Assembly: GCA_002747875.1 (NCBI GenBank)
Contig: PDQT01000288.1
Coordinates: 1 to 32,936, forward strand
From: a bacterium DOLZORAL124_64_63
Lineage (GTDB): Bacteria > Krumholzibacteriota > Krumholzibacteriia > LZORAL124-64-63
Direction: 5' to 3'
Length of the DNA: 32,936 nt
Every line of letters begins with the position of its first letter. Position 1 is the stretch's first letter. The translations under genes were made by a program, and so were the position numbers. Below, one piece after another: positions 12,786 through 28,910 of this stretch. The notes under the pieces were generated by a model that did no database searches, was not told the DNA's origin, and worked only from the letters and a program-made list of their open reading frames with translations.

Positions 12786-13754
12786 TCAGCCCTTGGCCTG
12801 GGCGTGCTTCTCCATCTCCTCGGCAATGGTCTGGTTGATCTTGAGGGCCAGCTGCAGGGCGTTCAGCCCGTCCAGGCCACTGACGGCGGCCGGTTGCTGC
12901 TGCCGGATGGCCCGCACGAAGGAGCGGATCTCTGCCAGCAGATTGTCCGCGGGCCCGTGTTCCACCTCTTGGGGCAGGGCAAGGTCCTGCGCGCCGGCGG
13001 GCTTGCGGAATATCTGGTTCTGCCGGCTGGCGCAATCGGCCACCACATAGCCTCTGGTGTGGATCACTCGGAAACGCCGCATATCCTTGAAACTGAGGCG
13101 GCTGGCCGTCAGGTTGGCCGTGCACCCATCCGCGAAGCTGAGCCGCGCGTTGGCCAGGTCCACGTTGGGGGTCACCACGGGCACACCCGTGGCGCGGATC
13201 TCCACCAGCGGGGCCTTCACCAGCGACAGCAGGATGTCCAGATCGTGGATCATCAGATCCCGCACGATATCCACATCCGTGGCCCGACCGCTGAAGCGGC
13301 TCAGGCGGTGCGCCTCGACGAAGAGTGGCCTCCGGACCTCCTCGCGCAAGGTCTGCACGGCGGGATTGAAGCGTTCCAGGTGGCCCACCTGCAGCAGGAC
13401 ACCGGCCTTTTCCGCGGCCTGCAAAAGCTCGCGGGCTTCGGTTTCCGTGCTGGTGATGGGCTTTTCCACCAGGACGTGGATACCCGCTGCCAGCAAGGGC
13501 AGGGTCACGGCATGGTGGGTGACGGTGGGGGTGGCGACGCTGGCCAGATCCACGCGGCCGGGCAGGTCATCCAGGCTGGTGGTATGGGGCACGCCTAATT
13601 CAGCGCCCATGGCCGCGGCGCGGTCCGGGTCGCTGTCCACCACACAGACAAGGTCGACATCCGGCAGGGCGGCGTATTTCTGGGCGTGGAAGCGGCCCAG
13701 GTAGCCGGTGCCGATGACGGTGGCGCGGAGTTTGGTTTGGGAGTTTTTCATCAT
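12786..13754 (-). CDS. Gfo/Idh/MocA-family NAD(P)-dependent oxidoreductase, probable sugar-nucleotide dehydrogenase
   Basis: About 322 residues. The Rossmann domain starts RATVIGTGYLGRFHAQKYAA; the catalytic-region signature HVLVEKPIT follows, and GHLERFNPA and the RATDVDIVRDLMIHDLDI segment resemble UDP-N-acetylglucosamine 3-dehydrogenase (GnnA-like) and related enzymes. Such enzymes oxidise a sugar hydroxyl to a keto group that an aminotransferase can then aminate; a DegT-type aminotransferase lies in this island at 26700-27854, so a link is possible but unproven. The start is uncertain: tandem ATGs at 13754 and 13751, and an ATG at 13775, all lack a clear Shine-Dalgarno. It is divergent from the export operon and shares its regulatory spacer. 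The family is certain; the substrate is a guess. Confidence 0.85.
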   Translation of the reverse strand: MMKNSQTKLRATVIGTGYLGRFHAQKYAALPDVDLVCVVDSDPDRAAAMGAELGVPHTTSLDDLPGRVDLASVATPTVTHHAVTLPLLAAGIHVLVEKPITSTETEARELLQAAEKAGVLLQVGHLERFNPAVQTLREEVRRPLFVEAHRLSRFSGRATDVDIVRDLMIHDLDILLSLVKAPLVEIRATGVPVVTPNVDLANARLSFADGCTANLTASRLSFKDMRRFRVIHTRGYVVADCASRQNQIFRKPAGAQDLALPQEVEHGPADNLLAEIRSFVRAIRQQQPAAVSGLDGLNALQLALKINQTIAEEMEKHAQAKG

Positions 13755-13813
13755 GGGAGAAAAATACGTCGGCATCGGCCCGTGATACAGAAAATTCTCT
13801 TGTTTTCTCCGTG

Positions 13814-13829
13814 CGGCCAGACTTGGCCG
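13814..13829. repeat. Perfect palindrome in the exopolysaccharide regulatory spacer
   Basis: CGGCCA (13814-13819), a 4-nt spacer GACT, then TGGCCG (13824-13829). It lies in the 226-nt divergent spacer between the oxidoreductase and export genes and could be an operator for either direction. No T-run follows on either strand, so it is unlikely to be a terminator. Confidence 0.5.
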
Positions 13830-13870
13830 TTCCTGCAATCTGCGGGTTGATCGGGCGGGAATCCCGCAAC

Positions 13871-13896
13871 GGGATATCACCTTGGAGGGATATCAC
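13871..13896 (+). repeat. Two perfect 10-bp direct repeats abutting the export promoter
   Basis: GGGATATCAC occurs at 13871-13880 and again at 13887-13896, a 16-bp repeat period, with the second copy ending directly against the -35 box. Tandem same-orientation half-sites in this place are typical of activator binding sites, for example response regulators. The repeats are seen directly; the binding protein is unknown. Confidence 0.7.
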
Positions 13897-13925
13897 TTGA
13901 CGACAAAGCGCGGCGGACCAATACT
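13897..13925 (+). promoter_or_regulatory. Sigma70-type promoter of the exopolysaccharide export operon
   Basis: TTGACG (13897-13902), 17-nt spacer, AATACT (13920-13925). The -35 is one base from consensus and the -10 is weaker, consistent with an activator-dependent promoter. Transcription would start near 13932, excluding upstream in-frame start codons and favouring the ATG at 13981. Confidence 0.6.
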
Positions 13926-13980
13926 CTGGATGAATACAATCTTCCGTCAACTTCGGTACCAGGCCAAGGAGGGCCTGAAT

Positions 13981-16398
13981 ATGCGTGTTTTGAGAAAGCA
14001 TCTCCGTGCGGCCGTTCCGGTCCTTTTCCTCCTTGTGTCGGCCTCCATTTTGGGGTGGCCCCTTTGTGTCTCCGCCCAGGAACAGCTTTCCTCCCAGCAA
14101 TTGACACCGGAGATGCTGGCAGAGGCGTCCCGGCGTACCGGGCTGAGTCAAGAGGAATTGCTGCGCCGCTACCAGGCCCGCGCGGGAGAGGCGGACACAC
14201 CTGCCGCAGAAACGGTGAATCAGCCGGGGCGGACATCTCTGGAAGGTGTTGACGACAGCACTGTGGAGCAACCTTTCGTGGATTCGGATCAGGAAGTGGC
14301 TCTTCCTTTCAGCAATCTGCTGACCGAAGAAATGGCCGATATTTTTGCCGACAGTTTGCTTGCCCAGAGTGTCGCGGAAGACAGCATCGCCTTTTTCGGG
14401 ACTGATTTTTTTCAGCTGGACGACGGCGTGTTCAGCCCGCCTTCCTTCGGCCCCGTGCCCCAGGATTACCGTTTGGGCGTGGGGGATGAAGTCATCGTCA
14501 ACGTGTGGGGGGCCATCGAGTACCAGGAAACCCGCCTGGTGGATCGGGATGGCAGCATCATTCTGCCTGGGGGCGGCAAGATCATGTGCGCCGGACGGCG
14601 GCTTGCCGAAGTGGGCAATGCGGTGCGCCAGTCCCTGGCGCGGAGCCATTCCACCATCGACACGGGTGATGGGGGCGACACGGAGGTCGAGGTCACCCTG
14701 GGTAAATTGCGCTCCATTCGGGTATACGTGGTGGGGGCGGTGCAACGTCCCGGTAGCTACGAACTGAGCAGTGTTTCCCGCATGCTGACGGCCCTTTACG
14801 CCGCCGGCGGCCCTACCGTGGATGGCTCTTTCCGGTCGGTGCGGCTGGTTCGGGGAGGGGAGAAAATTGCGAATTTCGATCTCTATCGCTACCTGCTGAG
14901 CGGTGACCGTTCCGCCGACGCCCAATTGCGGGAAGGGGACACGGTCTTCGTGCCCGACGTGGGGCCCATTGTGCGTATCAGCGGGGAGGTCAAGCGGCCT
15001 CTCTACTACGAAATGCTACCCGGCGAAACGCTGAGAGATCTGCTGACCTTCTGTGGAGGTTTCACGTCCCGAGCCGCCACCGAGGCGGTCCATATCCAGC
15101 GGATCCTGCCTCCGGAAGAACGTCGGTCGGGAGAGTCGGATTACACCTTCGAGGATGTGCCCTTCGATGCCGAAGCCATGCATTCCCGGCAGGGCCCGGT
15201 GCCGATTCTGGACGGGGATGTCGTTCTGGTCGATACCATCAGCGAGCGTATGGGGAACTTTGTGGAGGTGATGGGCCGGGTGAAAAGACCGGGCCGGTAT
15301 GAGTTGGAACCTGGTATAACGGTCGGGGACTTGGTGCGTGTGGCCGGCGGCCTTTGGCCGGATGCCCTGCTGGAAAGCGCGGTCATTGATCGAACCAGCC
15401 GGGAAGGGGGGTTCTTCGCCCTGAGTGTCCCTCTGGGGAAGATCCTGGATGGATCCAGTGCTGATGTTGCCCTTCAGGACGGTGACATCCTGGAGGTTTT
15501 CACGCGCTGGGATATTCAGGACCGCCCCATGGTGTATATCTCGGGAGAGGTGCACGAGGCCATGTCGGTGCCTTGGCGCGAGGGTATGACCTTGCGCGAC
15601 CTGGTGCTCAAGGCGGGGGGGCTCAGCGCCCACGCCGACTGGTTGCACGCCGAGATCGCCCGTCTTCTGGATGCCGCGGTCAGGAGCCATGATCTGAGGC
15701 GGCAGCCGGAGCAGACGGTGGAGGTACTGGAGGTCAGCCTCGGGAATGATTTTTTGCTTCGTCAGGATATTCCTGTCCTGCAACCCTGGGACCGGGTCTA
15801 CATCCGCAAGCTGCCCTGGTGGCAAAACCAGCGGACGGTACAGATTTTCGGTGAGGTGTTCTACCCCGGAACGTTCAGCCTGGAACGGCAGGACGAGCGT
15901 CTGTCTTCGGTGATCGCCCGGGCGGGTGGATTGAAACCGGATGCTTACCTGCTGGGGGCGCGGATCGTGCGAGAGCAGGAGGATGTGGGGAACATCGCCA
16001 TCGATCTGAAAAAGGCCCTGGAAGATCCCGGTAGCGAGCAGGACATCATTCTGCAGGACGGCGACCGGCTGGTCATCCCGGACCGTATGTTCACCGTCAC
16101 CGTTCGGGGCGAAGTGGGCTTCCCCACCAGCCTGGTTTTCCAGGACGGTCTGAAGATCGATGACTATGTGGATATGGCCGGCGGGTATCTGGAGAAGGCC
16201 GACAAGGGCCGGACCCGGGTGGTATGGCCCAACGGCCTGAGCTTGCCCAACAAAGGCAGCAGCAAGGTGGTGGCGGGGGCCACTATCATCGTGCCGGTGG
16301 AGCCCCCGCCGGAAGGCCGGGATACCTGGGAAATCATCCGTGATATCAGCAGTGTCGTGGCCAGTCTGGCTACGGTGTGGTTGATCGTGGACAAATAG
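13981..16398 (+). CDS. Multi-SLBB polysaccharide export protein (Wza-like)
   Basis: An 805-residue exported protein. The ATG at 13981 is preceded by AGGAGGG (13967-13973) and opens a classical signal peptide (basic MRVLRKHLR, a hydrophobic core, cleavage probably after VSA at residue 32). A poly_export domain follows, with YRLGVGDEVIVNVWG from residue 163. Six SLBB-type repeats start near residues 250 (VVGAVQRPGSYEL), 333 (ISGEVKRP), 430 (VMGRVKRPGRYEL), 520 (ISGEVHEA), 622 (IFGEVFYPGTF) and 708 (VRGEVGFP). The C-terminus is a membrane-spanning segment, DISSVVASLATVWLIVDK. Known relatives form the periplasmic/outer-membrane channel for capsule or exopolysaccharide; the extra SLBB units and end anchor make it about twice the size of E. 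coli Wza. It is first in the forward operon, 15 nt from the Wzz-like gene. Confidence 0.9.
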   Translation: MRVLRKHLRAAVPVLFLLVSASILGWPLCVSAQEQLSSQQLTPEMLAEASRRTGLSQEELLRRYQARAGEADTPAAETVNQPGRTSLEGVDDSTVEQPFVDSDQEVALPFSNLLTEEMADIFADSLLAQSVAEDSIAFFGTDFFQLDDGVFSPPSFGPVPQDYRLGVGDEVIVNVWGAIEYQETRLVDRDGSIILPGGGKIMCAGRRLAEVGNAVRQSLARSHSTIDTGDGGDTEVEVTLGKLRSIRVYVVGAVQRPGSYELSSVSRMLTALYAAGGPTVDGSFRSVRLVRGGEKIANFDLYRYLLSGDRSADAQLREGDTVFVPDVGPIVRISGEVKRPLYYEMLPGETLRDLLTFCGGFTSRAATEAVHIQRILPPEERRSGESDYTFEDVPFDAEAMHSRQGPVPILDGDVVLVDTISERMGNFVEVMGRVKRPGRYELEPGITVGDLVRVAGGLWPDALLESAVIDRTSREGGFFALSVPLGKILDGSSADVALQDGDILEVFTRWDIQDRPMVYISGEVHEAMSVPWREGMTLRDLVLKAGGLSAHADWLHAEIARLLDAAVRSHDLRRQPEQTVEVLEVSLGNDFLLRQDIPVLQPWDRVYIRKLPWWQNQRTVQIFGEVFYPGTFSLERQDERLSSVIARAGGLKPDAYLLGARIVREQEDVGNIAIDLKKALEDPGSEQDIILQDGDRLVIPDRMFTVTVRGEVGFPTSLVFQDGLKIDDYVDMAGGYLEKADKGRTRVVWPNGLSLPNKGSSKVVAGATIIVPVEPPPEGRDTWEIIRDISSVVASLATVWLIVDK

Positions 16399-16413
16399 CA
16401 AGAGAGCGGAGCA

Positions 16414-17421
16414 TTGGCTGAATATCAGGATTCGGGCAGCCAGATGAAGACCGAAAGTATAGACCTGCTGGACACTTTGCTGATTCATCGCAAAATGTTT
16501 CTGGTGCTGGTGTTGCTAGGGGTCCTGGGAGCTGCCGCTATTTTCTGGACCCGGGTCCCGATTTACAAGGCAGAGGTGACCATCCTGCCCCGTGGCGGGG
16601 CGTCCAGCACGGGGCTGCTGGGGCGGTTGACCGGCTTCAGTGACATCTTGCCCCAGGGCGATACCAACCTCGAAGACCTTTACGGCAAGATCGTGATTTC
16701 CGATGCCGTTCTGGATTCTCTGAGTCTGCGCGAATGGTCCGTGGGAGATCCTCCCGAGCAGGGAACTCTCGTTCGCTGGCTGGAATTGGATGATGAGAAC
16801 GCTTCCCGGGAAGTTCAACTGCTGCGGACCAAGCGAGAATTGCGTAGCGAAGTGATCCGCTTTCATCGGGATTTTCAAACAGGTTTCATGGTGTTGACCG
16901 TGTCCGTGCCGCGCTACCCTCGGCTGGCACGGGACTTGGCCAATGGTATCGCCGACTATCTGAACCGATTCAACATTGAGTATCGCACCAAGAAATCCCG
17001 GGATAAACGCGCTTTTATCGAAGAACGTCTCGCCCATGTCGATGTGGCCCTGGAGCAGGCGTCCGCCCGGATAGCCGATTTTCGGCAAAAGAACCGGAAT
17101 TTCCACTCTTCACCGGCATTGCAGGCTCGCCACGGGGAACTGGAACGTGAATTGAGGGCCCAGGAAACCATCTGGGTAGAGTTGAAACGCCAGTACGAAT
17201 TGGTGAAGATAGAGGAGAATCGGGAGACTCTCACGGTCGATGTCCTGGACCGGGCTTTATTACCCCTGGGACCTTCCGGGCCCGGACTGATTATTTTTCT
17301 GATCTTCGGCGGTATTGTCGGGTTCATCGTGGCGTTGGTGGTTCTGGGTGGACGCTGGCTGCGGCAGGACATCCGGCAGAGGATGGCAGGCAGGGAGCGT
17401 ATGGTTAAGGACCGGGCCTGA
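16414..17421 (+). CDS. Wzz-type chain-length determinant / polysaccharide co-polymerase
   Basis: About 335 residues with the polysaccharide co-polymerase topology: a short cytoplasmic N-terminus (IDLLDTLLIHRKMF), a first membrane helix (about 27-46), a periplasmic domain with coiled-coil-forming helices (about 190-270), and a second membrane helix (about 288-312). It controls the number of repeat units added by Wzy. No tyrosine-kinase (BY-kinase) domain is fused, unlike Wzc. The start is either TTG at 16414 (GAGAG about 7 nt upstream) or ATG at 16444; TTG is kept, with doubt. The stop overlaps the next ATG by one base. Confidence 0.82.
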   Translation: MAEYQDSGSQMKTESIDLLDTLLIHRKMFLVLVLLGVLGAAAIFWTRVPIYKAEVTILPRGGASSTGLLGRLTGFSDILPQGDTNLEDLYGKIVISDAVLDSLSLREWSVGDPPEQGTLVRWLELDDENASREVQLLRTKRELRSEVIRFHRDFQTGFMVLTVSVPRYPRLARDLANGIADYLNRFNIEYRTKKSRDKRAFIEERLAHVDVALEQASARIADFRQKNRNFHSSPALQARHGELERELRAQETIWVELKRQYELVKIEENRETLTVDVLDRALLPLGPSGPGLIIFLIFGGIVGFIVALVVLGGRWLRQDIRQRMAGRERMVKDRA

Positions 17422-18683
17422 TGAAGAAAGGGCTGGTCTGGATCCTGGGTCTCATCATGTTGCGTCCGCACCCGGAGATATTGGGGAGCCAACTGGCTGT
17501 TTATCTGGGCGATCTTCTTTTGCTCGGCTTCTTGTTGTTCATCGTGGCGCGTAAGAAGAGTTTGGTGCTTGTTCCCGCCAGCCGAACCGGCTTGCTGATC
17601 GGGGCCGTGTTTCTTGTTGTGGATTGGTGGTTGGCTCTTTTCAATTTGCATCTGGGCGGCATCCAGCCGGATGTTGTGCGCTTCACTTTGCTCGGGCTTT
17701 TCCTGGTTCTCCTGCTGGATTATTTCCATACTGAGGTGGAGGACAGCCGGTGGCGATCTGTTCTGGACGGGTTCTTCTGGGTCATGCTGGGCATTGTGCT
17801 GTTGCAACTGCTGAATCCCCCTGTTCTGGGCGATCTGGTGCGTATGATCTGGGGTAGTGTCAAGTTGCGGGATATCTGGCATGGCTATCCTCGGGTTTAC
17901 GGCGCCTTTTATAACGCCAACTGGTTTGGTATTTATCTCGTTTTCATGCTTTCCGTATGGGTCAGTGAATTGAAGGACTCTCGTGATTTCCGGATGCGGG
18001 ACATGGCGCGTTTCGGAGCCCTGATGGTGATGTTTTTTCTTTCAGGTTCGCGCACCGCACTGGTGGGGGCTGGTATCGTGGTCATGCTGGCGGTCTGGCC
18101 CTTGGGGATTTTCCTGGTCCGGATGGTTCGTAAAACCAGGTTCCTGGTGGCTTTGGCCGTACTGTTTGTGCTCCTGGGTTGGGGATCTCAGTACCTGGAG
18201 ATTTTCGGCAAGCTGGTGGATCGGTATCTCTCGTTTCAGGCCGTGCTCCTCGATGGTCAGGCCGATAACAGCATGGTCGGTCGTATCAGTCTGTGGCGGG
18301 AAGGATTCACCTGGTATGAGATGAGGCCCGCTCTAGGGTATGGCACCCTGCCCGGCGACTACTTACCGCACAATAGTTACCTGTCGGTGGCTTTGGCCAT
18401 GGGGTGGCCGGGCTTGGTGGGGTTGTTGGTCTTCGTGGGGTGGTTCTTTTTTCAGGCGCTGATACGCTATTTGCGCTTTGGGCATTCTCCAAGTCTGGGG
18501 TTTTGCTTGTTCACGGCGGCCCTGGCGGTGATGTCTCTGTCCGGTGAGTACTTCTTTGCCGGTCAGGTCATGCTCTTGTGGCTATTGGCGCTTGTCTGGG
18601 CTCTGGGGCCTGCCTGCCCGGGGATTCGTTATTCACAAGAAATTTCGGAACCGGGTGGTCTCGTGGGAGAGGTGAGTGTTTGA
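17421..18683 (+). CDS. Wzy-like O-antigen/exopolysaccharide polymerase (O-antigen ligase family)
   Basis: A 420-residue, highly hydrophobic protein with about ten to twelve membrane helices. Features of the Wzy_C/O-antigen ligase family: the RVYGAFYNANWFGIYL helix start, SGSRTALVG, and a large periplasmic loop with GRISLWREGFTWYEMRPALG leading to YLPHNSYLSVALAMG, where the His-Asn-Ser-Tyr pattern is typical. It would join lipid-linked repeat units in the periplasm or ligate glycan to an acceptor; pairing with Wzz and Wzx in the same operon favours polymerase. It overlaps the Wzz stop by 1 nt and ends 2 nt before the GT2 start. Base composition is visibly more T-rich than the flanking translation genes. 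Confidence 0.85.
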   Translation: MKKGLVWILGLIMLRPHPEILGSQLAVYLGDLLLLGFLLFIVARKKSLVLVPASRTGLLIGAVFLVVDWWLALFNLHLGGIQPDVVRFTLLGLFLVLLLDYFHTEVEDSRWRSVLDGFFWVMLGIVLLQLLNPPVLGDLVRMIWGSVKLRDIWHGYPRVYGAFYNANWFGIYLVFMLSVWVSELKDSRDFRMRDMARFGALMVMFFLSGSRTALVGAGIVVMLAVWPLGIFLVRMVRKTRFLVALAVLFVLLGWGSQYLEIFGKLVDRYLSFQAVLLDGQADNSMVGRISLWREGFTWYEMRPALGYGTLPGDYLPHNSYLSVALAMGWPGLVGLLVFVGWFFFQALIRYLRFGHSPSLGFCLFTAALAVMSLSGEYFFAGQVMLLWLLALVWALGPACPGIRYSQEISEPGGLVGEVSV

Positions 18684-18685
18684 AG

Positions 18686-19630
18686 ATGAATGGGCCGCCG
18701 ACCATTTCTCTGGTAGTTATCGGATGCAATAGCGAAAATACGCTGCGGTCCATTTATCACGGGCGGTATCTGGAAGTTCTGCGTGAAATGTGCGGGGAAC
18801 TGATCTATGTCGATTCCGCTTCTCGGGATGATTCGGCGGCATTCATGGCCGCCGCTGGTTTCGCTGTGCGGAGGTTGTGCCCCGATGGGGTCATGAATGC
18901 GGCGGCCGGTCGCGCCGTCGGTACCGCGGCCAGCCAGTCCCACCTTATTCTGTACCTGGATTCGGATATGGAACTGGAACACCCCGAAAAGGTGGGTGAA
19001 CTGGCGGCCCAGGTTTTGGAATCACCTTTTTGTGGCGTCGTGGGGGAGGTGGTGGACGTCTTGCCGGATGGTACACGACGTTTGCGTGTGCGCAAGGTGG
19101 GGCCCCGGCATGAGGCCACCTCGTTCGGGGGCTTTCTGATAATCGAGCGGGAGGCGGTCCTGCAGGCGGGTAACTGGAATTCCGGACTCTGCGCCAATGA
19201 AGAGCTGGAGTTGCATTGCCGTCTGACTCGAAAAGGCCAGCGGGTTCTCTACCGCCGGGAGTTTCGTGTTTTTCATCATACAGGCTTTCACTCTTCGCCT
19301 TTGAACCAACTGGCGGCGTTGTACATACCGTGGGTGGCACCGCGTCGTTACGGAGCCTTTGGCAAAGTTATCCACTCCAGTTTGCGGGGCGGTTTCCTGG
19401 GGGCTGTGATACGGCATTTTCCGGAACCCTTTTTGTTGCTGTTGGCACTGCTGGCCTTCTTCGGGCTGCGGACTCCCTGGCCGGGTGTCGCTTTGTTGCT
19501 TTTCTATGAAGGTGTTTTGCTACGCCGGCGCAGCTGGAAATTCAATGCGGTGGTTCCCGGAGTTTTACTTTCCGCCCCCTATGGCTTTCTCGCCTATCGT
19601 CAGAAGCAGGCCCGGGAGCTTTCTGAATGA
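18686..19630 (+). CDS. Family 2 glycosyltransferase with C-terminal membrane segments
   Basis: 314 residues. A GT-A fold is indicated by TISLVVIGCNSE at the N-terminus, IYVDSASRDDSA, the metal-binding DxD in LYLDSDMELEHP (DSD at 92-94), and an acceptor-side acidic motif in ANEELELHCRLTRKG (171-184). A C-terminal hydrophobic pair (about 246-280) should tether it to the inner membrane, where it would add a sugar to the lipid-linked repeat unit. The ATG at 18686 has GAGGTGA 10 nt upstream; a TTG at 18680 is a less likely start. The stop overlaps the next gene by 4 nt. Donor and linkage cannot be read from the sequence. Confidence 0.88.
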   Translation: MNGPPTISLVVIGCNSENTLRSIYHGRYLEVLREMCGELIYVDSASRDDSAAFMAAAGFAVRRLCPDGVMNAAAGRAVGTAASQSHLILYLDSDMELEHPEKVGELAAQVLESPFCGVVGEVVDVLPDGTRRLRVRKVGPRHEATSFGGFLIIEREAVLQAGNWNSGLCANEELELHCRLTRKGQRVLYRREFRVFHHTGFHSSPLNQLAALYIPWVAPRRYGAFGKVIHSSLRGGFLGAVIRHFPEPFLLLLALLAFFGLRTPWPGVALLLFYEGVLLRRRSWKFNAVVPGVLLSAPYGFLAYRQKQARELSE

Positions 19631-20829
19631 AGGTCCTCCTGGCTTCTCTTTCTTACTTGCCATCCGTCGGAGGGTTGGTTTCCTATCTGGAAAATTTCGG
19701 CCGGTTTTTGAATCGCTCGGAGCATGAGGTACGGATTGTCTGCTCCAACAGGCCAGCCCATGATCTTCCTGATTCTGAAATAATGGCCGGTATTCCCGTC
19801 CGGCGTGTCCATGCCATGCGCAGTAATGTTTTCGATGCGCTTTTCAAGCCTTTCGTGGCGGTGGCGCGGTTGGTTCGGGGTTTGAGGACCGAGGAAACGG
19901 GAGCGGATCTGGTCCTGGTGCGCCATCTCTATCTGGCGGCGGCTCTCCTGATCGCGGGGGCGGACCCTGCGCGGGTGGTGTATCTGGTTCCCTTGGCCGC
20001 GTCCCGCCTCATGTGGATCAATCGTGATGACGCGGGCTTCTTGCGCAAGCTTTACACCCTGTGGCTTATCCCCCAAGTCTATCTGCTGGAATGGTGGGTG
20101 TTGCGGCGCTTGGACCATGTGGCCGTGCTCAGCGAAAGCAAACGAAACGAAATTCAGGATTATTATCGTCTGTCCCGGAAGCCAGAGGTGATCCCGCCCG
20201 GTATTGACCTCGATGTCCACACCCCGGTGAAGGATCCGGTACATCGCCGGGCTATTTTGACGGAACTCGGTCGGCCAGAGGACGCTGATCGGAAAATAAT
20301 ACTGACGGTCTGTCGACTCGTGGCCGAGAAGAACACGGCAATCTTGCTGGAGGCTCTGTCCCGGTGCCAGGATTCAGAGACCGTCCTGTACGTGGTCGGT
20401 GACGGACCGCTGGCCCCTATGCTGGCCAAGCAGGCCGTGGATCTGGGGCTTACCGAGCGGGTGGTCTTTTTCGGGTACGTTCCCGATCCCACCGATCATT
20501 ACCGGGTGGCGGACCTGTTCGTCCTGCCTTCTACCTACGAGGGGTTCGGCCATGTCTTTCTCGAGGCTCTGGCTTGTGATGTCCCCGTGGCGGGTCTGGG
20601 GCACAATCCTCCGGAGGTGATCACCGCCACGGATGAAATTATCAGCCCGGAAGTGGGATATGTTGTGCGCGACAATACCGCGTCGACCTGGGCGGCGATG
20701 ATGGATGACCATTTTCGGGATGGTGGGGGTATCCCGGCCGGACGGTGTCGGGAATATGCCCGGAAACGTTTCTCTTGGGACCAACATCTGCGTCACCTGC
20801 TCGATGTCGTGGAGAGAGCCCATGTATAG
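19627..20829 (+). CDS. Family 4 glycosyltransferase
   Basis: 400 residues with the GT-B fold of retaining GT4 enzymes. N-terminal SLSYLPSVGGLVSYLENFG includes the glycine-rich acceptor loop. The C-terminal donor domain has ILTVCRLVAEKN (Arg230, Lys235), YVVGDGPL, VVFFGYVPD, and STYEGFGHVFLEALACDVPV with the E-x7-E pair at 305 and 313. It adds a sugar from a nucleotide donor to the growing lipid-linked glycan on the cytoplasmic face. It overlaps the preceding stop by 4 nt and the following flippase start by 8 nt, so translational coupling is likely. Specificity is unknown. Confidence 0.9.
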   Translation: MKVLLASLSYLPSVGGLVSYLENFGRFLNRSEHEVRIVCSNRPAHDLPDSEIMAGIPVRRVHAMRSNVFDALFKPFVAVARLVRGLRTEETGADLVLVRHLYLAAALLIAGADPARVVYLVPLAASRLMWINRDDAGFLRKLYTLWLIPQVYLLEWWVLRRLDHVAVLSESKRNEIQDYYRLSRKPEVIPPGIDLDVHTPVKDPVHRRAILTELGRPEDADRKIILTVCRLVAEKNTAILLEALSRCQDSETVLYVVGDGPLAPMLAKQAVDLGLTERVVFFGYVPDPTDHYRVADLFVLPSTYEGFGHVFLEALACDVPVAGLGHNPPEVITATDEIISPEVGYVVRDNTASTWAAMMDDHFRDGGGIPAGRCREYARKRFSWDQHLRHLLDVVERAHV

Positions 20830-22262: not shown

Positions 22263-23663
22263 GTGAAAAAATCATTGGCGGCCCTGTACTGGAATCTCCC
22301 CGAACCCTGTAAGGATCTTCTGGGTGCGGGTCTGCGTCGAGTTCCCCGTTTTCAGGTGAGGCCGGGGACCGAGGAAGTGGCTTATCATACAGAACTTCAG
22401 AAGACGCAAGGCTGGAGCGCGGAACAGCTGCGGGAATTGCAATCCGAACGTCTTCATGATCTCATGGTCCATTGCCATGAGCACGTGCCTTATTACCGGG
22501 ATCTCATGCTGGAGCGTGACCTGCGGCCCGCTGATTTCACTCAGCCTGAGGACCTTGCCAAGTTGCCTCTGCTGACCAAGGACATCATCCGGAAAGCCCC
22601 GCGGTGTTTTCTGAGCACGGCCCCTGACCAGGGGAGACGCATCACAGTGAGTACAGGAGGCAGTACGGGCACTCCCATGGAGTTCGTTTTCGATGCCCGG
22701 ATGGACGGTGTGCGCCGAGCGCACTGGTGGCGTTGGTCGGATATGGCGGGAGTGGATCTGTATCGGGATCGGATGGTGTACTGCGGGGGGATTCCGTACC
22801 AAGGGGGGCGACGAGCGGTGGTGGACCGGGGAGTCCTTTCTCCGACCCGGGATCGCTTGCACCTGGGCACGACCAAGATGACGGACGCGGTTCTGGATCG
22901 CTTCCTGAAGGATCTTCGCCGGTTCGGAGCCGATTACATGCGCGGGTATGCCTCCGGGTGCTATCTGCTGGCGCGTCGTCTCCTGGACCGTGGTGAGACC
23001 TATCCCTTGAAAGCGGTCCTGACTTCCTCTGACACCCTGTATCCTCAGTACCGAGAGGCCATGACTGAGGCCTTTGGTTGTGGTGTGTTTGATCACTACG
23101 GACAGAACGAAGACAGTCTGACAGCCAATGAATGCGTCGCGCATACCGGCATGCATATCAACGTCGAGAGCTGTATCCCCGAGACGGTGGATGACGCTGG
23201 GGAATCTGTCCAGGCCGGGGTGGGGCGTCTTGTCAGCACCCATCTCATGAACACGACCATGCCTCTGATCCGGTATGCGGTGGGGGATCGCGGCGAACTG
23301 GGGCCTTTCGACGCGGACTGCCCATGCGGTCGTCATCATCAGAAGTTGCTGAACCTGGATGGACGGGATGATGAAATCATCGAGACACCCGAAGGGGCTC
23401 GGGTGGGGTGCGGTTCCCTGAATCAGCCGATGAAGCACATGGCGGGACAGGTGGGGGCCAGCCAGTATATTCAGAGGGCGGATGGGGGGCTCACGTTGCG
23501 TATCGTTCCCGGACCGGATTTTCAGAAGGATGCGACCTGCGCGGCATTGGCCCGAGCGGTGCAAGAGCATCTCGAATCGGCCATCGCCGTGGATGTGGAA
23601 GTGGTGGATCGTATTCCCACTCGGCCCAATGGGAAGTTCCAGTTCATCGTTCGGGAATCATGA
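22263..23663 (+). CDS. CapK/PaaK-like adenylate-forming enzyme
   Basis: 466 residues related to phenylacetate-CoA ligase and coenzyme F390 synthetase (COG1541), the CapK type common in capsule clusters. The phosphate-binding loop STGGSTGTP is at 130-138, the adenine/substrate region is DHYGQNED (277-284), AVGDRGE is at 339-345, and the C-terminal lysine loop IPTRPNGKFQFIV carries K458 at the usual catalytic place. A CPCG cysteine motif lies at 353-356. The enzyme should activate a carboxylate as acyl-AMP, perhaps to modify the glycan; the real substrate of cluster CapK proteins is unknown. GTG start at 22263 with GGAG at 22249-22252. The next gene starts 33 nt downstream. Confidence 0.82.
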   Translation: MKKSLAALYWNLPEPCKDLLGAGLRRVPRFQVRPGTEEVAYHTELQKTQGWSAEQLRELQSERLHDLMVHCHEHVPYYRDLMLERDLRPADFTQPEDLAKLPLLTKDIIRKAPRCFLSTAPDQGRRITVSTGGSTGTPMEFVFDARMDGVRRAHWWRWSDMAGVDLYRDRMVYCGGIPYQGGRRAVVDRGVLSPTRDRLHLGTTKMTDAVLDRFLKDLRRFGADYMRGYASGCYLLARRLLDRGETYPLKAVLTSSDTLYPQYREAMTEAFGCGVFDHYGQNEDSLTANECVAHTGMHINVESCIPETVDDAGESVQAGVGRLVSTHLMNTTMPLIRYAVGDRGELGPFDADCPCGRHHQKLLNLDGRDDEIIETPEGARVGCGSLNQPMKHMAGQVGASQYIQRADGGLTLRIVPGPDFQKDATCAALARAVQEHLESAIAVDVEVVDRIPTRPNGKFQFIVRES

Positions 23664-23696
23664 AGACATCGGTTTGGATTCGTATGACCAGAAAGG

Positions 23697-24920
23697 ATGA
23701 TCACCTTGGGATGGAAACACAGGATCCTGGCCTTTGTGAATGCTCCGGAAGACGGCGTCCGCAGTTCCCAGACTCTTTATGAGAGCTTGTTCTATCTGCT
23801 GGAGAGGGCTCAGGCTCAACCCGCCGAGTCTGTGCGGGACGAGACCCGCCGGGTCGCCCATCTCATCGTGGCGAGTCAGCTGCCGGATGGGGGCTTTGAT
23901 ATCGGCTACAACTTCCGGTTTGGCCGGGGTATGGAGAAGAGCCATTCCAAGGAGGGGACCACGCCGGAGGTCCTTTCGTTGACCGCCCTGGCTCTTTATT
24001 ACCAGCGCTATGAGGATGCCGATGTCCTTGAGGCTCTGCGCCGTGGTTACGACTGGATCAGGAGCCACATGGTGTCGGCTGCCGGTGGCTACGCCGTTCC
24101 GTACGCGCCCCTGACTTCTCGGGAAGTTCATATTACCAATGCCACCAGCTTCGCTCTGTCCGCCCTTGCGTGTTGTGCCGAGGTGCTGGGCTGCCGGGCC
24201 GAGGTGGAGCAGGAGATCCAGGGCATGGTGACCTTCATGCAGGGCCAGCTGCAAAGGGCCGAAGTTGGCGGTGCCTACTGGCCTTACTTCCACCAGACCG
24301 ATGCGGTCCTCGCCAGCGAACCGGGTGCGGACAAGATCGACAATTACCATATCGGCCAGCAGTTGTATCATCACTGCCTGGCGCACAAGGTTTTCCCTCT
24401 GGAGGAGAACGCGGCCATCATTCGCGCGGTGCTGGACTACCTGATCAGCCTACAGGATGAGGATGGTTTCATCCCGTACACCATCAAGTCGGGAAAGGTC
24501 TCGGACGCGGTGGATACATGGGGATTCTCGTCTACCATAACCGGTTTTTTGTCAGCGGCGGAAATCTGTGGCGATGAGCGCGGGAAGGTGGCGGCCGGTC
24601 GTGTCGCGGATTATCTCTGGCGTCATGCCTGGTCGGGCGAGCATTTCTACCCCATTGTCTCTCATGCCTCGGGCCAGCCCCTTGATACCCATTTCTATCC
24701 CCGTTCCGACGCCTGGGTGCTCCATGCCCTGGCCATGGAGCAGGCTCAACTCCCGGATGGGGATGCCTCCCGCTGGGATGACCTGCGACGTTGTTATGAG
24801 AAGATGGCGGTGAACGATTTCCGCGGGCTGGAAAACCACACACTGACGCCCCGCAAGCGCCTGTTTGGGTGGGCGGTGATGCTACCCCTGGCCTTGCGGG
24901 CTCGTCTCAGGAAGCGCTGA
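23697..24920 (+). CDS. Helical toroid ((alpha/alpha)6-type) protein of unknown function
   Basis: About 407 residues, soluble and without a signal peptide. Repeated helix-turn units with Gly-Phe turns (VASQLPDGGFDIGY, LISLQDEDGFIPYT) resemble squalene/terpene-cyclase or prenyltransferase-type alpha-toroids and many glycan-active (alpha/alpha)6 enzymes. Conserved-looking polar/aromatic patches include DNYHIGQQLYHH and DTHFYPRSDAWVLHALAM. No DXDD cyclase motif is evident, so hopanoid synthesis is not supported; acting on a glycan or lipid-linked sugar is a guess from context. The start may instead be TTG at 23706, which has AAAGGA 8 nt upstream, better spaced than for the ATG at 23697. It overlaps the convergent GT4 gene tail to tail by 14 nt. 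Confidence 0.72.
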   Translation: MITLGWKHRILAFVNAPEDGVRSSQTLYESLFYLLERAQAQPAESVRDETRRVAHLIVASQLPDGGFDIGYNFRFGRGMEKSHSKEGTTPEVLSLTALALYYQRYEDADVLEALRRGYDWIRSHMVSAAGGYAVPYAPLTSREVHITNATSFALSALACCAEVLGCRAEVEQEIQGMVTFMQGQLQRAEVGGAYWPYFHQTDAVLASEPGADKIDNYHIGQQLYHHCLAHKVFPLEENAAIIRAVLDYLISLQDEDGFIPYTIKSGKVSDAVDTWGFSSTITGFLSAAEICGDERGKVAAGRVADYLWRHAWSGEHFYPIVSHASGQPLDTHFYPRSDAWVLHALAMEQAQLPDGDASRWDDLRRCYEKMAVNDFRGLENHTLTPRKRLFGWAVMLPLALRARLRKR

Positions 24921-26022
24921 GTCCCATGATGTTCAGGATATCCTGGTTCACCTTGTGGACGTCAAATCGATCGCGGGCCAGGCGACGGGAGGCTTGGCCC
25001 ATGGTCGCGATGGTCTTGGGGTTTCGACAGAAAGCGATCATGGCTTCGGCCAGAGCCGGGGCGGAACCCACCGGAACCAGATAGCCATTCTCGCCGGGAA
25101 TCACTGTTTCCCGGCAACCGGGCGCGTCGGTGGTGATCACCGGGCGCCCCATGGCCATGGCCTCCAGCACCGTCCGCGGCAAACCTTCGCGATAAGATGG
25201 CAGGACGTAGATGGAGGCGTCTCGGAGAGCCGGCCGTACATCGTCCATGCGACCGGCAAAGTTTAGGATACCGTTTTTCTGCCAGCTTTCTACTTCGGTG
25301 GCGGGAATGTTGGAGATGTGGTCTTCGTGGTATCCCACTAGGTTGAAGGTAGCGCCGGGAAATTCCTGGCGAACCTGACGGGCGGCGGCGGCGTATTCCC
25401 GCACTCCTTTTTCCCGGATCAGGCGGGCAATGGTCAGAAAGTGCGGGCCGTCGGGCAGGGGAGCTTCCGCGTAATGAGCCAGGTCCACCCCGGAACCTGC
25501 CACGAGATGGGTGCGTTCGGGTTTGGCCAGACGATGCTCCAGGAATAGAGCCCTATCGTCCGGGTTTTGGAAGATTACGGACTGGCATTTTCCCAGGGCT
25601 TTCCGATACAACAACTTGACAAGCACATGCAGGGCCTTGCGGCTGGGGCTGGCCCCCTGGAAGGCCGTACCGAGCCCGGTGATCAAGGCATGCCGGTGGG
25701 GCACGTTGGCCCGTTCCGCCGCGATGCTGCCGTAAATAACGGGTTTTATCGTGTAGGATAGAGCGTGGTCGGCCTGGAAATCGCGCAGGATTCTCGTGAG
25801 TACGGAAACGGTCTGGATGTCGGCCAGCGGAGACAGTCCGGTGCGTTGCAGAGGGAAGGCCTGGTGCTGGATGCCCAGCCGAGAGATCTGTTCCAGAGAC
25901 GATGTATCAGGCTCGGGCGACAGGGCGATAACCTGATGGCCATCTTTGACCAACCGTTGTAAAAGATGACCCCGGAAGTTCATCAAGGACGGCGTATAAC
26001 TGGCGATGATGGCTATTCTCAA
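24907..26022 (-). CDS. Family 4 glycosyltransferase, PglA/WbnK-like
   Basis: 371 residues, GT-B fold. The N-terminal domain carries SYTIKPVIYGSIAA and ITGLGTAF, a pattern seen in GT4 enzymes that add the second sugar to an undecaprenyl-diphospho-N-acetylamino sugar (PglA and similar). The donor domain has FLTIARLIREKG (Arg200, Lys205), FNLVGYHED, and PSYREGLPRTVLEAMAMGRP with the E-x7-E pair at 279 and 287. The start is TTG at 26022 with AAGAGAG upstream. It is the third gene of the minus-strand block aminotransferase-GNAT-GT4. That context fits transfer onto an amino sugar started by the phosphoglycosyl transferase at 28224, but specificity is inferred. Confidence 0.87.
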   Translation of the reverse strand: MRIAIIASYTPSLMNFRGHLLQRLVKDGHQVIALSPEPDTSSLEQISRLGIQHQAFPLQRTGLSPLADIQTVSVLTRILRDFQADHALSYTIKPVIYGSIAAERANVPHRHALITGLGTAFQGASPSRKALHVLVKLLYRKALGKCQSVIFQNPDDRALFLEHRLAKPERTHLVAGSGVDLAHYAEAPLPDGPHFLTIARLIREKGVREYAAAARQVRQEFPGATFNLVGYHEDHISNIPATEVESWQKNGILNFAGRMDDVRPALRDASIYVLPSYREGLPRTVLEAMAMGRPVITTDAPGCRETVIPGENGYLVPVGSAPALAEAMIAFCRNPKTIATMGQASRRLARDRFDVHKVNQDILNIMGLSAS

Positions 26023-26058
26023 CGGGAGCTCTCTTTTGCAAATCTCATGGCAGGTGAT

Positions 26059-26703: not shown

Positions 26704-27854
26704 GAGGAGGACTCCTGACAGGAAGATCTTGGGCGGGGGCGGGCCACTCGGCCCAGAAAATTGACGGTACGCCGTATCTCGGCCTCCGAAAAACGGTGGT
26801 CGGTGGGGATGTTGATGACCTCCCGGGAGGCCTGCTCCGCCACCGGGCATGTGCCGGGGCGATATCCCGCCAATTCCCATTTTTCCAGATTGGGGTGAAT
26901 GGGAGATAGGAACCAGTCGCCAAGCTGCACCCTTTCCTTGCGGGCGGCCGTCAACACTTCCTCCTTGTTCGCCACCGGAACGGGGTAGCGCAAAAATACC
27001 ACATCGGTCTCGGACGGTTGCTTCACGGTGGGAAGATTGTGCCGCACCAGTTCCTGCTCGATGATCGACTTATTCCTCCGGCGAATCTCAATATGATGGT
27101 CCAGATTGTTCAGCAGTTGCCGCAGGCGCCGGCTTTGTAGTCGGTGCATGCCGAGCTGGTAGTCCTGTGGCAACGCACATGCCAACTCTTCCAGGCTGGA
27201 AGAACCAATGGCTAGGCCCATGGCACCGAGGGTGCGGTACAGGCTCTGGATCAGCCAGTAAAGCCGGGGTGAACTGAGAGCGTTGTAGGCCAGGAACTGG
27301 ATTTCCAGGATCAGGGCCTTCAGCATGGGGGGGGCAGGATACTCGTTCTGGATCTGCAGCACCTGAGCCCGTAGCTCGGGATCATTAATCTGAGCCCAGC
27401 CACCCAGCCCCGTGGTGACGGGTTTCGACCACTGACTGCTGAAGAAGGCGGCATCTCCCCAGCTGCCGACGGGTTTGCCCTGCCAAGTGGAGGAAAGGGC
27501 GTGGCAGGAGTCCTCGATGACGAGGAGTTCGTACTTACGGGCGAAGGCCAGCAATCGTTCCACATCCGCGGGAATACCGTAGGTGTGCTGGATGATGAGG
27601 GCGCGGGCTTTTCCCGGGACCCAGGTCTGTCCTTTGTGACTTTCCAGACGGGTGCTGTCCAGATTATAAGTCTGGTTTTCGATATCCAGAAAAACGGGGG
27701 TTGCACCGGTGTACTGGATGGCATTGGGTACCACCACGCAGGTATAGCCCGGCAACAGCACTTGATCTCCAGGACCAATACCGGCGGCTCGGAGAATAGC
27801 GTGCAGTGCCACCCGACCTTTGAAAAAGGGAATGATGGTTGGGGGGGCCGTCAT
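26700..27854 (-). CDS. DegT/DnrJ/EryC1/StrS-family sugar aminotransferase
   Basis: A 384-residue PLP enzyme of the sugar aminotransferase family, which converts keto-sugar nucleotides into amino sugars. GDQVLLPGYTCVVVPNAI is the usual N-terminal substrate loop. VIEDSCHAL (113-120) supplies the PLP-ring aspartate (D115) and the following His-Ala. The FFSSQWSKPVTTGLGGWA segment carries the Schiff-base lysine K144 in the usual place. The C-terminal part is more divergent, with a long helical middle (about 175-260), and the last residues are Arg/Ser-rich. The ATG at 27854 has only a weak GAGGAAAG about 12 nt upstream. It leads the minus-strand block and is divergent from the phosphoglycosyl transferase across a 369-nt spacer. 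Substrate unknown. Confidence 0.88.
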   Translation of the reverse strand: MTAPPTIIPFFKGRVALHAILRAAGIGPGDQVLLPGYTCVVVPNAIQYTGATPVFLDIENQTYNLDSTRLESHKGQTWVPGKARALIIQHTYGIPADVERLLAFARKYELLVIEDSCHALSSTWQGKPVGSWGDAAFFSSQWSKPVTTGLGGWAQINDPELRAQVLQIQNEYPAPPMLKALILEIQFLAYNALSSPRLYWLIQSLYRTLGAMGLAIGSSSLEELACALPQDYQLGMHRLQSRRLRQLLNNLDHHIEIRRRNKSIIEQELVRHNLPTVKQPSETDVVFLRYPVPVANKEEVLTAARKERVQLGDWFLSPIHPNLEKWELAGYRPGTCPVAEQASREVINIPTDHRFSEAEIRRTVNFLGRVARPRPRSSCQESSS

Positions 27855-28223
27855 AGGTGGCTACGCTTTCCTCGCTCGTCAACCAAGGGCGCTTTGATGT
27901 TGGGCCCGGTGCCCGGAACCTTTGCGGAAGAACACCACATAATACTAAGGATTTACAAGCTTCTAACGATAAGTGGTTTTTCGGATGGCCGATTGGAGCA
28001 ACATACGGCTTTTCGAGATAGCGATAAAGGGAAAGTTTATAAAAAAAGTGGCTACTTTCTGAAAATTGTGCATATTTTTTGCGTTCACAGATAAAAGCGT
28101 ATTCTGTTCCGCTCATCATGAGACACATGACAACACGGGAAACGGACGGAATGTGTCACCGGATCACGAGTTTGGGGCCGTTTTGTTTTCAAACCTGAGA
28201 GTATTTCTTCGAGGGGGATTTTC
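27855..28223. other. AT-richer divergent intergenic spacer
   Basis: This 369-nt stretch has no credible gene; the longer frames across it run into flanking genes in the wrong frame. It is clearly richer in A and T than the rest of the window, especially 27940-28110. It must hold promoters for the minus-strand aminotransferase block and the forward phosphoglycosyl transferase. Toward the left, TATTAT on the minus strand (complement near 27940) is a possible -10. GACACAT (28122-28128) and ATGTGTC (28151-28157) form a 7-bp inverted repeat in the probable forward leader. Confidence 0.6.
28066..28095 (+). promoter_or_regulatory. Possible promoter for the phosphoglycosyl transferase gene
   Basis: TTGTGC (28066-28071), 18-nt spacer, GATAAA (28090-28095), in the AT-rich spacer about 130 nt upstream of the start codon. 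The match is moderate, and other pairs in this AT-rich tract cannot be excluded. Confidence 0.3.
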
Positions 28224-28910
28224 TTGCTCAAGCGATCTCTTGACCTTGTAGGTGCATTTTTGGGTCTGGTTCTGCTGGCCCCACTGTTCACTGCAGTGGC
28301 CATCGGAGTAAAACTCTCCAGTTCGGGGCCGGTTTTTTTTCGGCAAGAACGGGTGGGTAAAAATGGTGTGCCTTTTTGGATTTATAAATTCAGGACCATG
28401 ACCCACAACCCTCGTGGCAAAGGCGCTCTTGTCACATCCCAGACCGATAACCGGGTCACGCCTCTGGGGGGATTCCTGAGGCGGAAGAAGCTGGATGAGT
28501 TGCCGCAGCTGTTCAATGTCTTGCTGGGGCAGATGTCCCTGGTGGGGCCCCGACCTGAAGTCCCCCGGTATGTCCAGTACTTTCCTGATCACTTTGCCAA
28601 GGTCAATCGCCAGAAGCCGGGCATGACCCACCGCGTTTCTCTCTTGTTGCGCCATGAGGAGAAGATTCTGGCTGCCAGCTCTGATCCTGAGGCCATGTAT
28701 GTAAAAGAGGTGTTGCCCTGGAAGCTGGGGTTGTATCTGGAAAACGATACACCCGACTCGCTGGCCGATGATATCATCACCATCTGCCGGACTATCATAC
28801 CCCAGGGGCAGGATGAACTGACGCAGGATCCCTTTGTCGATTCGCCGCTGGTGGCCCATGAGACCGCAGGTGGTCCCGCTACTCAAGAAGTTGCCGCCGC
28901 CGCCAGTTGA
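28224..28910 (+). CDS. Polyprenyl-phosphate sugar-1-phosphate transferase (bacterial sugar transferase, PglC/WcaJ core)
   Basis: 228 residues, the small monotopic form of the family that transfers a sugar phosphate to undecaprenyl phosphate and starts glycan assembly. An N-terminal re-entrant hydrophobic helix (LKRSLDLVGAFLGLVLLAP) is followed by FFRQERVGKNGVPFWIYKFR, the catalytic Asp-Glu dyad in KLDELPQLFNVLLGQMSLVG (D91, E92), GPRPEV (108-113) and KPGMTH. The C-terminus, LPWKLGLYLEND and beyond, ends in a variable Ala-rich tail. The start is TTG at 28224 with GAGGGGG (28211-28217) 6 nt upstream. It is divergent from the aminotransferase block and the last island gene before the rpsO promoter, 23 nt downstream. 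Confidence 0.93.
   Translation: MLKRSLDLVGAFLGLVLLAPLFTAVAIGVKLSSSGPVFFRQERVGKNGVPFWIYKFRTMTHNPRGKGALVTSQTDNRVTPLGGFLRRKKLDELPQLFNVLLGQMSLVGPRPEVPRYVQYFPDHFAKVNRQKPGMTHRVSLLLRHEEKILAASSDPEAMYVKEVLPWKLGLYLENDTPDSLADDIITICRTIIPQGQDELTQDPFVDSPLVAHETAGGPATQEVAAAAS

What the first reader, a model, noticed from the sequence alone, without database searches (positions are those of the whole stretch)
12786..28910. Exopolysaccharide island sits precisely between ribF and rpsO of the translation-factor operon
The order rimP-nusA-(ylxQ)-infB-rbfA-nrnA-truB-ribF-rpsO-pnp-M16 peptidase is near-contiguous in many bacteria. Here every member is present and in order, but about 16 kb of glycan genes separate ribF from rpsO. 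The island genes look less GC-rich than their neighbours, especially 17.4-22.2 kb and the 27.9-28.2 kb spacer. No integrase, transposase or flanking repeat was seen, so entry by homologous recombination, or an old rearrangement, is more likely than a recent mobile element.
Basis: partly seen in the sequence, partly recalled or inferred. Interest (0 to 1): 0.7.

Follow-up and report, generated by a model that had tools for sequence, protein, structure and literature searches.

The report
Coat-sugar locus inside translation operon
In one order of uncultured bacteria, the gap between two protein-synthesis genes holds a changing set of sugar-polymer genes that likely build the outer coat, and in this genome most of that set was likely swapped in from elsewhere.

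Summary
In detail: 16,431 bp of mostly glycan genes separate ribF from rpsO in an otherwise intact translation operon. It is not a one-off insertion. In all 17 genomes of this order with both flanks on one contig (this one included) the gap is 2.4-31 kb; in 20 of 20 fetched outgroup genomes of the class it is 111-310 bp. Contents differ: 207 called interval genes form 85 clusters, 56 in one genome only, around a recurrent skeleton (SLBB exporter towards ribF; priming transferase, CapD or APS kinase CysC towards rpsO). One deep branch has RmlA-RmlC-CysC there and its SLBB polysaccharide cluster elsewhere; in the other branch that cluster sits in the gap. The gap likely opened once with a small module, then captured the cluster, and now works like a cps/K locus. 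Here, slbb to the priming transferase is low in GC3 while gfo beside ribF looks native, and 7 of 13 genes occur in no other sampled interval: replacement is likely but not proven (AU test p = 0.17). The kind is known; site, lineage and history appear new.

The parts
11663..12760 (+). ribF, left flank of the locus
   Evidence: FAD_syn and Flavokinase Pfam domains; start chosen by the gene caller
12786..13754 (-). Gfo/Idh/MocA dehydrogenase, convergent with ribF; native composition; predicted UDP-GlcNAc 3-dehydrogenase-like
   Evidence: PF01408; NF040723 175 bits, below its cut-off of 450; 7bvj 201 bits, there named only an NAD-binding oxidoreductase; GC3 at 46th percentile; cluster in 7 genomes' intervals
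13930..16398 (+). SLBB/Poly_export outer-membrane exporter (Wza/EpsE-like)
   Evidence: PF02563, PF10531; TIGR03028 163 bits, below cut-off; on the ribF contig in 14 of 16 branch B genomes that have it
16414..17421 (+). predicted chain-length regulator (Wzz/GNVR-like, no kinase domain found)
   Evidence: PF13807 at E 5e-5, below cut-off; 2 predicted TM segments
17421..18683 (+). Wzy-type polymerase / O-antigen ligase family
   Evidence: PF04932 54.9 bits; 8 predicted TM segments
18680..19630 (+). weak GT2-like glycosyltransferase
   Evidence: PF00535 E 3e-4, below cut-off
19627..20829 (+). GT4-type glycosyltransferase
   Evidence: PF00534 97.8 bits
20870..22216 (+). predicted Wzx-like flippase
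   Evidence: 10 predicted TM segments and position only; no Pfam, NCBIfam or PDB sequence match
22275..23663 (+). PaaK/CapK-like AMP-dependent ligase
   Evidence: NF045666 136 bits, below cut-off 300
23697..24920 (+). 407-aa (alpha/alpha)6-barrel protein, predicted sugar epimerase/hydrolase-like cargo gene
24907..25953 (-). GT4-type glycosyltransferase
   Evidence: PF13692 109.5 bits
26059..26691 (-). GNAT acetyltransferase, likely acting on the DegT product
   Evidence: PF00583 49.6 bits on the longer ORF 26059-26880; DegT-GNAT fusions of 586 aa among homologs P0158, P0172
26700..27761 (-). DegT/DnrJ aminotransferase (perosamine synthetase-like)
   Evidence: PF01041 174.5 bits on the longer ORF 26700-27854; homologs up to 63% identical
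28224..28910 (+). Bac_transf phosphoglycosyl transferase (priming enzyme)
   Evidence: PF02397 166.9 bits; on the rpsO side in several relatives
29117..29200 (+). conserved rpsO leader; upstream GCCATCGT is complementary to the start-codon region ACGATGGC
   Evidence: full motif absent from 70 rpsO loci of the named records
29192..29461 (+). rpsO, right flank of the locus
   Evidence: PF00312

Best explanation
In this bacterial order the ribF-rpsO interval is a fixed site filled with variable, mostly glycan genes (2.4-31 kb in 17 of 17 genomes that can be judged, against 0.1-0.3 kb in 20 of 20 fetched outgroup genomes), and in this genome the 13 genes there are predicted to make a Wzx/Wzy-type surface polysaccharide. 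Likely working order: the Bac_transf enzyme primes the lipid carrier, the glycosyltransferases extend the unit with an amino sugar made by DegT and GNAT (and possibly Gfo), a Wzx-like protein flips it, Wzy polymerises, the GNVR protein sets the length, and the SLBB protein exports. Likely history: the gap opened once at the base of the order with a small sugar-nucleotide/APS-kinase module (still the whole content in the branch A genomes that were read); at the base of branch B the cell's SLBB polysaccharide cluster moved into the gap; afterwards cargo turned over while anchor genes next to ribF and rpsO persisted. In this genome slbb-to-Bac_transf was probably replaced as a block, by recombination in conserved neighbours (inferred). 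rpsO keeps its own leader directly downstream of the gap, which would let S15 control survive whatever lies upstream (inferred).
For: Gap sizes: 15 genomes of the order plus G003 (about 29.1 kb) and G004 (about 30.9 kb); 20 outgroups 111-310 bp; 15 further outgroups not fetched show the two matches within 0.45 kb in the tables. Glycan, sugar-nucleotide or APS-kinase genes in the sequenced part of the interval in 34 of 38 genomes of the order (by clustering with representatives scanned); of the other 4, G013, G017 and G027 have next to no interval sequence on the flank contig and G026 has three called genes that I did not scan. The order is one clade (100/99), split into branch A (8 genomes, 100/99) and B (30, 98/92) on RibF+RpsO+PNPase. 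All 8 of branch A have gaps of 2379-2553 bp; RmlA-RmlC-CysC order seen in 7 (RmlA is broken in two calls in G021), CysC in all 8. Stand-alone CysC at 64% identity or more: 18 of 18 hits lie in this interval, 10 of them in branch B (36 of the 38 genomes searched). SLBB relatives (E up to 1e-40) lie on other contigs in 7 branch A genomes but on the ribF contig in 14 of 16 branch B genomes that have one; branch A's clusters elsewhere carry Wzz, AsnB, WecA-like and GT genes resembling branch B interval genes, AsnB at 53-54% (G037 and G035). SLBB tree repeats the A/B split at 100/100. Replacement here: GC3, 7 of 13 genes in single-genome clusters, 407-aa gene in 1 of 78 genomes though relatives are named in Vibrio, Shewanella, Oleiphilus and Bacillus, and SLBB/flank distance ratio 2.6-2.8 to its own genus against a median of 1.1 over 190 pairs, exceeded by two other pairs.
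Against: AU test does not reject that this genome's SLBB belongs with its genus (p = 0.17), so replacement of slbb is not shown. Two other pairs (G035-G036, G013-G027) have higher SLBB/flank ratios, so the ratio is noisy. The GC3 background may be biased and 10% of neutral background windows are as low. Branch A lacks SLBB in the gap, so the ancestral content could have been larger and then lost. G031 has ribF and rpsO on two contigs that each run over 61 kb into the interval side without meeting, with PPDK-type genes beyond CapD: there the locus was broken by rearrangement. Short branch B intervals (G029: CapD only) show that the site is not always a whole polysaccharide locus. HNH and PAS genes lie there in one genus. 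Wzx is called from TM count alone. On broken contigs, called genes were assumed to lie in the interval. All genomes are MAG-like, many fragmented. No product has been measured.
Confidence: 0.82

Rival explanations
1. A single, purely ancestral glycan insertion at the base of the order that has only degraded and diverged vertically; low GC in this genome is relaxed codon selection, not import.
For: Shared anchors (CysC, SLBB, Bac_transf, Gfo) and SLBB tree congruent with flanks at deep nodes; AU test does not reject vertical descent of slbb here; genus mates' loci are 48-54% GC.
Against: 56 of 85 interval clusters occur in one genome; the 407-aa gene is found in 1 of 78 genomes of the phylum yet has relatives named in Vibrio, Shewanella, Oleiphilus and Bacillus; gfo inside the same interval has native GC3.
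Confidence: 0.15
2. A one-off genomic island recently inserted into this genome by a mobile element.
For: Low-GC block that starts and ends near gene borders.
Against: 16 of 16 relatives that can be judged have a filled gap at the same place; no tRNA, integrase, transposase or flanking repeat; the skeleton is shared with G010.
Confidence: 0.02
3. Assembly or binning chimera.
For: MAG-like assembly of 374 contigs with 6% contamination.
Against: Both junctions lie inside one contig; Gfo-SLBB order next to ribF and Bac_transf on the rpsO side recur in relatives' assemblies; SLBB groups inside the order.
Confidence: 0.03

Closest known systems
Pneumococcal cps locus (PMC5850285, abstract and outline read)
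   Same: Polysaccharide locus as an evolutionary hotspot with elevated recombination; its fixed flanks and conserved export/regulatory genes around variable transferases, Wzx and Wzy are recalled, not read here.
   Different: Flanks here are translation genes (ribF, rpsO); the exporter is of SLBB/Wza type; the comparison is between species and genera, not strains; within-species exchange could not be observed here.
Acinetobacter baumannii K locus and Klebsiella K locus (PMC9676051, PMC4453057; search listing only)
   Same: Polysaccharide gene clusters at a named chromosomal locus with variable content (details recalled).
   Different: Different flanks and lineage; here intervals can shrink to one gene (G029) or a 2.4 kb precursor module.
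Sulfated capsule locus of Vibrio sp. KMM 8419 (PMC11641403, passages read)
   Same: A second cysC copy with PAPS genes, dTDP-Rha genes and sulfotransferases in a capsule locus; compare CysC plus RmlA/RmlC in branch A and sulfotransferase plus CysC in G010 and G028.
   Different: ABC-transporter capsule in Vibrio; this window itself lacks CysC and sulfotransferase.
S15 autoregulatory rpsO leaders (PMC4137082, PMC7247131; passages read)
   Same: Conserved structured leader at rpsO that can cover the start codon.
   Different: This leader matches no Rfam family, its full motif is absent from 70 rpsO loci of the named records, and S15 binding is untested.

Membership tests
cps/K-type variable polysaccharide locus | Constant flanking genes | tested here: met
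   ribF and rpsO flank it in 17 of 17 genomes of the order with both on one contig; G031 is a rearranged exception on two contigs
cps/K-type variable polysaccharide locus | Variable gene content between the flanks | tested here: met
   207 interval genes in 85 clusters, 56 single-genome
cps/K-type variable polysaccharide locus | Export, chain-length and priming genes as a recurrent skeleton | tested here: met
   SLBB in 12, Bac_transf in 12, Wzz in 8 genomes' intervals by cluster; present in this window; not in branch A intervals nor in G029
Wzx/Wzy-dependent pathway | Wzy polymerase and Wzx flippase | tested here: inconclusive
   Wzy_C Pfam hit; Wzx only by 10 TM segments and position, no profile match
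cps/K-type variable polysaccharide locus | Exchange among strains by recombination in the flanks | not testable with these tools
   one genome per species held
cps/K-type variable polysaccharide locus | Product is a surface polysaccharide | not testable with these tools
   needs mutants and chemistry
Integrative mobile element / genomic island | Integrase, att repeats or tRNA target | tested here: not met
S15 autoregulatory leader (rpsO leader, in passing) | Conserved structure upstream of rpsO with covariation | tested here: inconclusive
   7-bp start-codon helix in the consensus of 43 of 53 sequences; 1 of 7 pairs changed on both sides

The most novel reading that the evidence does not exclude
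The gap in this translation operon is the coat-switching locus of a whole order of uncultured bacteria: essential, highly conserved ribF and rpsO-pnp act as recombination anchors, rpsO's own start-codon-clamping leader insulates it from the cargo, and entire polysaccharide cassettes (including genes from other phyla) are swapped there, starting from an ancient RmlA-RmlC-CysC seed that still marks the site.
Probability: 0.4. Interest if true: 0.6.

Novelty: new member of a known kind. Interest (0 to 1): 0.45.

Why it matters
It gives an uncultured lineage a predictable address for surface-polysaccharide genes, so coat type might be read from any genome or metagenome by looking between ribF and rpsO. 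It also offers an example of how a cps-like locus may start: a small precursor module in an operon gap, then capture of a full cluster, then cargo turnover with anchors left behind.

Tried and rejected
One-off insertion: rejected by the survey of relatives. Mobile element: nothing found. A clean phylogenetic proof of replacement through slbb: tried and not obtained (AU p = 0.17); a second AU test in the same call, holding G010 together with the window's genus, was rejected by the data (p 3e-5) but was a loosely chosen question and is not used. Donor search: the DegT homologs are diffuse (best 63%, 120 of 1222 listed); the 407-aa protein's best relative (63%) and a DegT homolog (56%) are both listed on a contig of 923,694 bases (P0002, P0131), which I could not fetch. 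Promoter and terminator scans gave no more than shuffled sequence (6 against 6.4; 17 against 17.5). Wzx: no PDB sequence match. Bac_transf over 38 relatives, 23 of them of this order, showed 3-7 copies per genome in those 23, so the gap is not the only polysaccharide site. Literature: searches for ribF + rpsO + exopolysaccharide + locus (1 paper, unrelated by its title and abstract start), five of rpsO/pnp/polysaccharide biosynthesis/island/insertion/infB (2, likewise) and Krumholzibacteriota + polysaccharide (11 papers, 10 listed, titles and abstract starts only) showed no description of this locus; most subscription papers are not covered. Lineage: one relative of the RbfA-NrnA protein (P0218, 69%) is named Candidatus Krumholzibacteriota; the phylum is therefore likely but not established. 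Rows dropped: L143 (same region as L033) from gene tables; G011 and G012 from the automatic gene calls because the caller failed on them (G012 read by ORF list; G011 judged by gap size and CysC hit); G005 and the second slbb piece of G033 from the SLBB tree, and G015 also; six G031 genes beyond the breakpoint; 10 of 53 leaders from the alignment.
Full report
What is there. The window is one whole contig (G000:C255) of a metagenome-like assembly of 3.36 Mb, 374 contigs, 93% complete, 6% contaminated. Pfam confirms the operon recG-rimP-nusA-(small ORF)-infB-rbfA/nrnA-truB-ribF ... rpsO-pnp-M16. Between ribF's stop at 12,760 and rpsO's start at 29,192 lie 16,431 bp with 13 predicted genes: a Gfo/Idh/MocA dehydrogenase pointing at ribF, then an SLBB exporter, a GNVR chain-length protein, Wzy, two glycosyltransferases, a 10-TM protein that is probably Wzx, a PaaK/CapK-like ligase, a 407-aa barrel protein, then on the other strand a GT4, a GNAT and a DegT aminotransferase, and finally a Bac_transf priming enzyme. 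No tRNA, long repeat, integrase or transposase marks the edges.

The site in relatives. The order holds 38 genomes, all of one family. rpsO was found in 34 and ribF in 33 of them. In 17 both lie on one contig, and the gap is 2,364 bp or more in every one: 2.4 kb (G024, G029, G005, G021, G011, G012), 2.5-2.6 kb (G034-G037), 4.9 kb (G032), 7.2 kb (G023), 13.7 kb (G008), 16.4 kb (here), 17.9 kb (G010), about 29 kb (G003) and about 31 kb (G004). In 20 of 20 outgroup genomes of the same class that I fetched, the gap is 111-310 bp, and the tables show the two genes within 0.45 kb in 15 more that I did not fetch. The gap is thus a feature of the order, not of this genome. In the remaining 21 genomes a flank is missing or on another contig; in G031 the two contigs are long and do not meet, which I read as a rearrangement.

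What fills it. Clustering the called interval genes gives 207 genes in 85 clusters, 56 found in one genome only (G011 and G012 not included, and genes on broken contigs assumed to lie in the interval). Recurrent clusters are CysC (16 genomes), SLBB (12), Bac_transf (12), GT4 (11), CapD (8), DegT (8), Wzz (8), Gfo (7), RmlA and RmlC (6 each). The called gene beside rpsO is most often CysC (12) or CapD (7); the one beside ribF is most often RmlA (6), SLBB (5) or Gfo (4). Representatives were confirmed by Pfam: APS kinase, CapD-type epimerase, RmlC, RmlA, UDP-glucose dehydrogenase, AsnB, WecA-like transferase, Wzx, Wzy, heparinase-like and sulfotransferase proteins. Not everything is glycan-related: genus g2 has an HNH nuclease and a PAS protein on the ribF side, and several representatives have no Pfam match.

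History. A tree of RibF, RpsO and the start of PNPase makes the order one clade and splits it into branch A (8 genomes) and branch B (30 genomes). Branch A gaps are 2.4-2.55 kb and carry RmlA-RmlC-CysC in the 7 genomes read and CysC in all 8. In a search of 78 genomes of the phylum (36 of the 38 of this order), the 18 best hits of this stand-alone CysC, at 64% identity or more, all lie in the ribF-rpsO gap, in both branches; everything else is at 59% or less, mostly inside longer frames, with shorter stand-alone ones in some outgroups. CysC therefore looks like an original resident. The close SLBB relative lies on other contigs in 7 branch A genomes; two of these neighbourhoods, read in G037 and G035, hold Wzz, AsnB, WecA-like and GT genes, and a shorter one in G021 similar pieces. 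In branch B it lies on the ribF contig in 14 of the 16 genomes where it was found; in the other two (G027, G013) it sits on contigs of its own. The SLBB tree shows the same A/B split at full support. The simplest reading is that branch B moved its polysaccharide cluster into the gap that CysC already marked. A larger ancestral content lost in branch A is not excluded.

This genome. GC3 of gfo lies at the 46th percentile, while each of the 12 genes from slbb to Bac_transf is at or below the first percentile of 134 background genes (the background may be biased towards GC-rich genes). With neutral 1-kb windows the island mean of 0.583 is reached by 10% of background windows but by none of the seven stretches over 11 kb. 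In 11 relatives with complete intervals the interval matches its flanks within 0.035. Seven of the 13 genes are in clusters seen nowhere else among the sampled intervals, and the 407-aa gene is in 1 of 78 genomes of the phylum although relatives are named in Vibrio, Shewanella, Oleiphilus and Bacillus. The SLBB distance to its own genus is 2.6-2.8 times the flank distance, against a median of 1.1 over 190 pairs; two other pairs are higher. Against this, an AU test does not reject vertical descent of slbb (p = 0.17). I take block replacement as likely, not shown.

Likely product. Wzy, a probable Wzx, GNVR, SLBB and Bac_transf together suggest a Wzx/Wzy-type polysaccharide (established pathway knowledge). 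DegT and GNAT probably make an acetylated amino sugar: DegT-GNAT fusion proteins exist among homologs (P0158, P0172). Gfo resembles UDP-GlcNAc 3-dehydrogenase models below their cut-off and entry 7bvj. The 407-aa protein is modelled with high confidence as an (alpha/alpha)6 barrel of the cellobiose 2-epimerase fold, so it probably acts on sugar, with unknown substrate. In G010 and G028 a sulfotransferase accompanies CysC (the G010 one by clustering), as in the sulfated capsule locus of Vibrio sp. KMM 8419, which carries a second cysC (PMC11641403, passages read); sulfation is thus plausible in those relatives, not in this window.

A fixed right edge. Directly upstream of rpsO lies a conserved leader: CTGC-N-GCCATCG, 28-70 bases before the start codon, complementary to the start-codon region CGATGGC. 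CCATCG facing the start is present in 52 of 53 genomes tested (33 of the order and 20 outgroup); G049 is the exception and has a TCATCG/CGATGA variant visible. RNAalifold returns this 7-bp helix as the only consensus structure of 43 of those sequences; one pair shows changes on both sides. The full motif is in none of 70 rpsO loci from the 80 named records, two of which have a bare CCATCG, and Rfam has no match. It is a candidate new S15 leader, and may explain why rpsO tolerates any cargo upstream.

Verdict. A cps-like, lineage-wide variable polysaccharide locus inside a split translation operon. The kind is known; the place, the lineage (likely Krumholzibacteriota, from one named relative) and the stepwise origin are new to me and were not found in the searches.

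Noticed in passing
window 29117-29200 (+), and upstream of rpsO in 53 genomes examined: Conserved rpsO leader, in 52 of 53 genomes of the class, whose GCCATCG arm is complementary to the start-codon region; no Rfam match, full motif absent from 70 rpsO loci of other named records. Candidate new S15 autoregulatory leader.
   Followed up: partly
window 9190-10593 (+): RbfA and NrnA are one 467-aa ORF; the same domain set is on the 120 listed of 453 homologs (where much shorter proteins are not candidates) and aligned over most of its length in the order's loci that reach it.
   Followed up: partly
L142:1924-3015, and by clustering L141, L133, L139 (genus g2): An HNH endonuclease gene lies near ribF, on the island side, in four genomes of one genus (G001-G004).
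   Followed up: no
G031 C15 and C95 (L012, L126): ribF and rpsO are not joined although both contigs run over 61 kb further; the locus seems split by a rearrangement, CapD left with rpsO and SLBB with ribF (about 20 kb of each side read).
   Followed up: partly
L018, L032, L012, L126, L125, L127 against window: Genus mates' loci have 48-54% GC while this genome's flanks are near 66% and sampled background near 62%: a large GC shift within one genus.
   Followed up: no
window 23697-24920: 407-aa (alpha/alpha)6-barrel family with 38 invariant columns in 40 aligned sequences; relatives named in Vibrio, Shewanella, Oleiphilus and Bacillus; no significant Pfam match for this protein.
   Followed up: partly
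G022 C84 and C94, G027 C84 and C34: Contigs break just inside the interval on both sides, as expected if the locus varies among co-occurring strains; not tested statistically.
   Followed up: no
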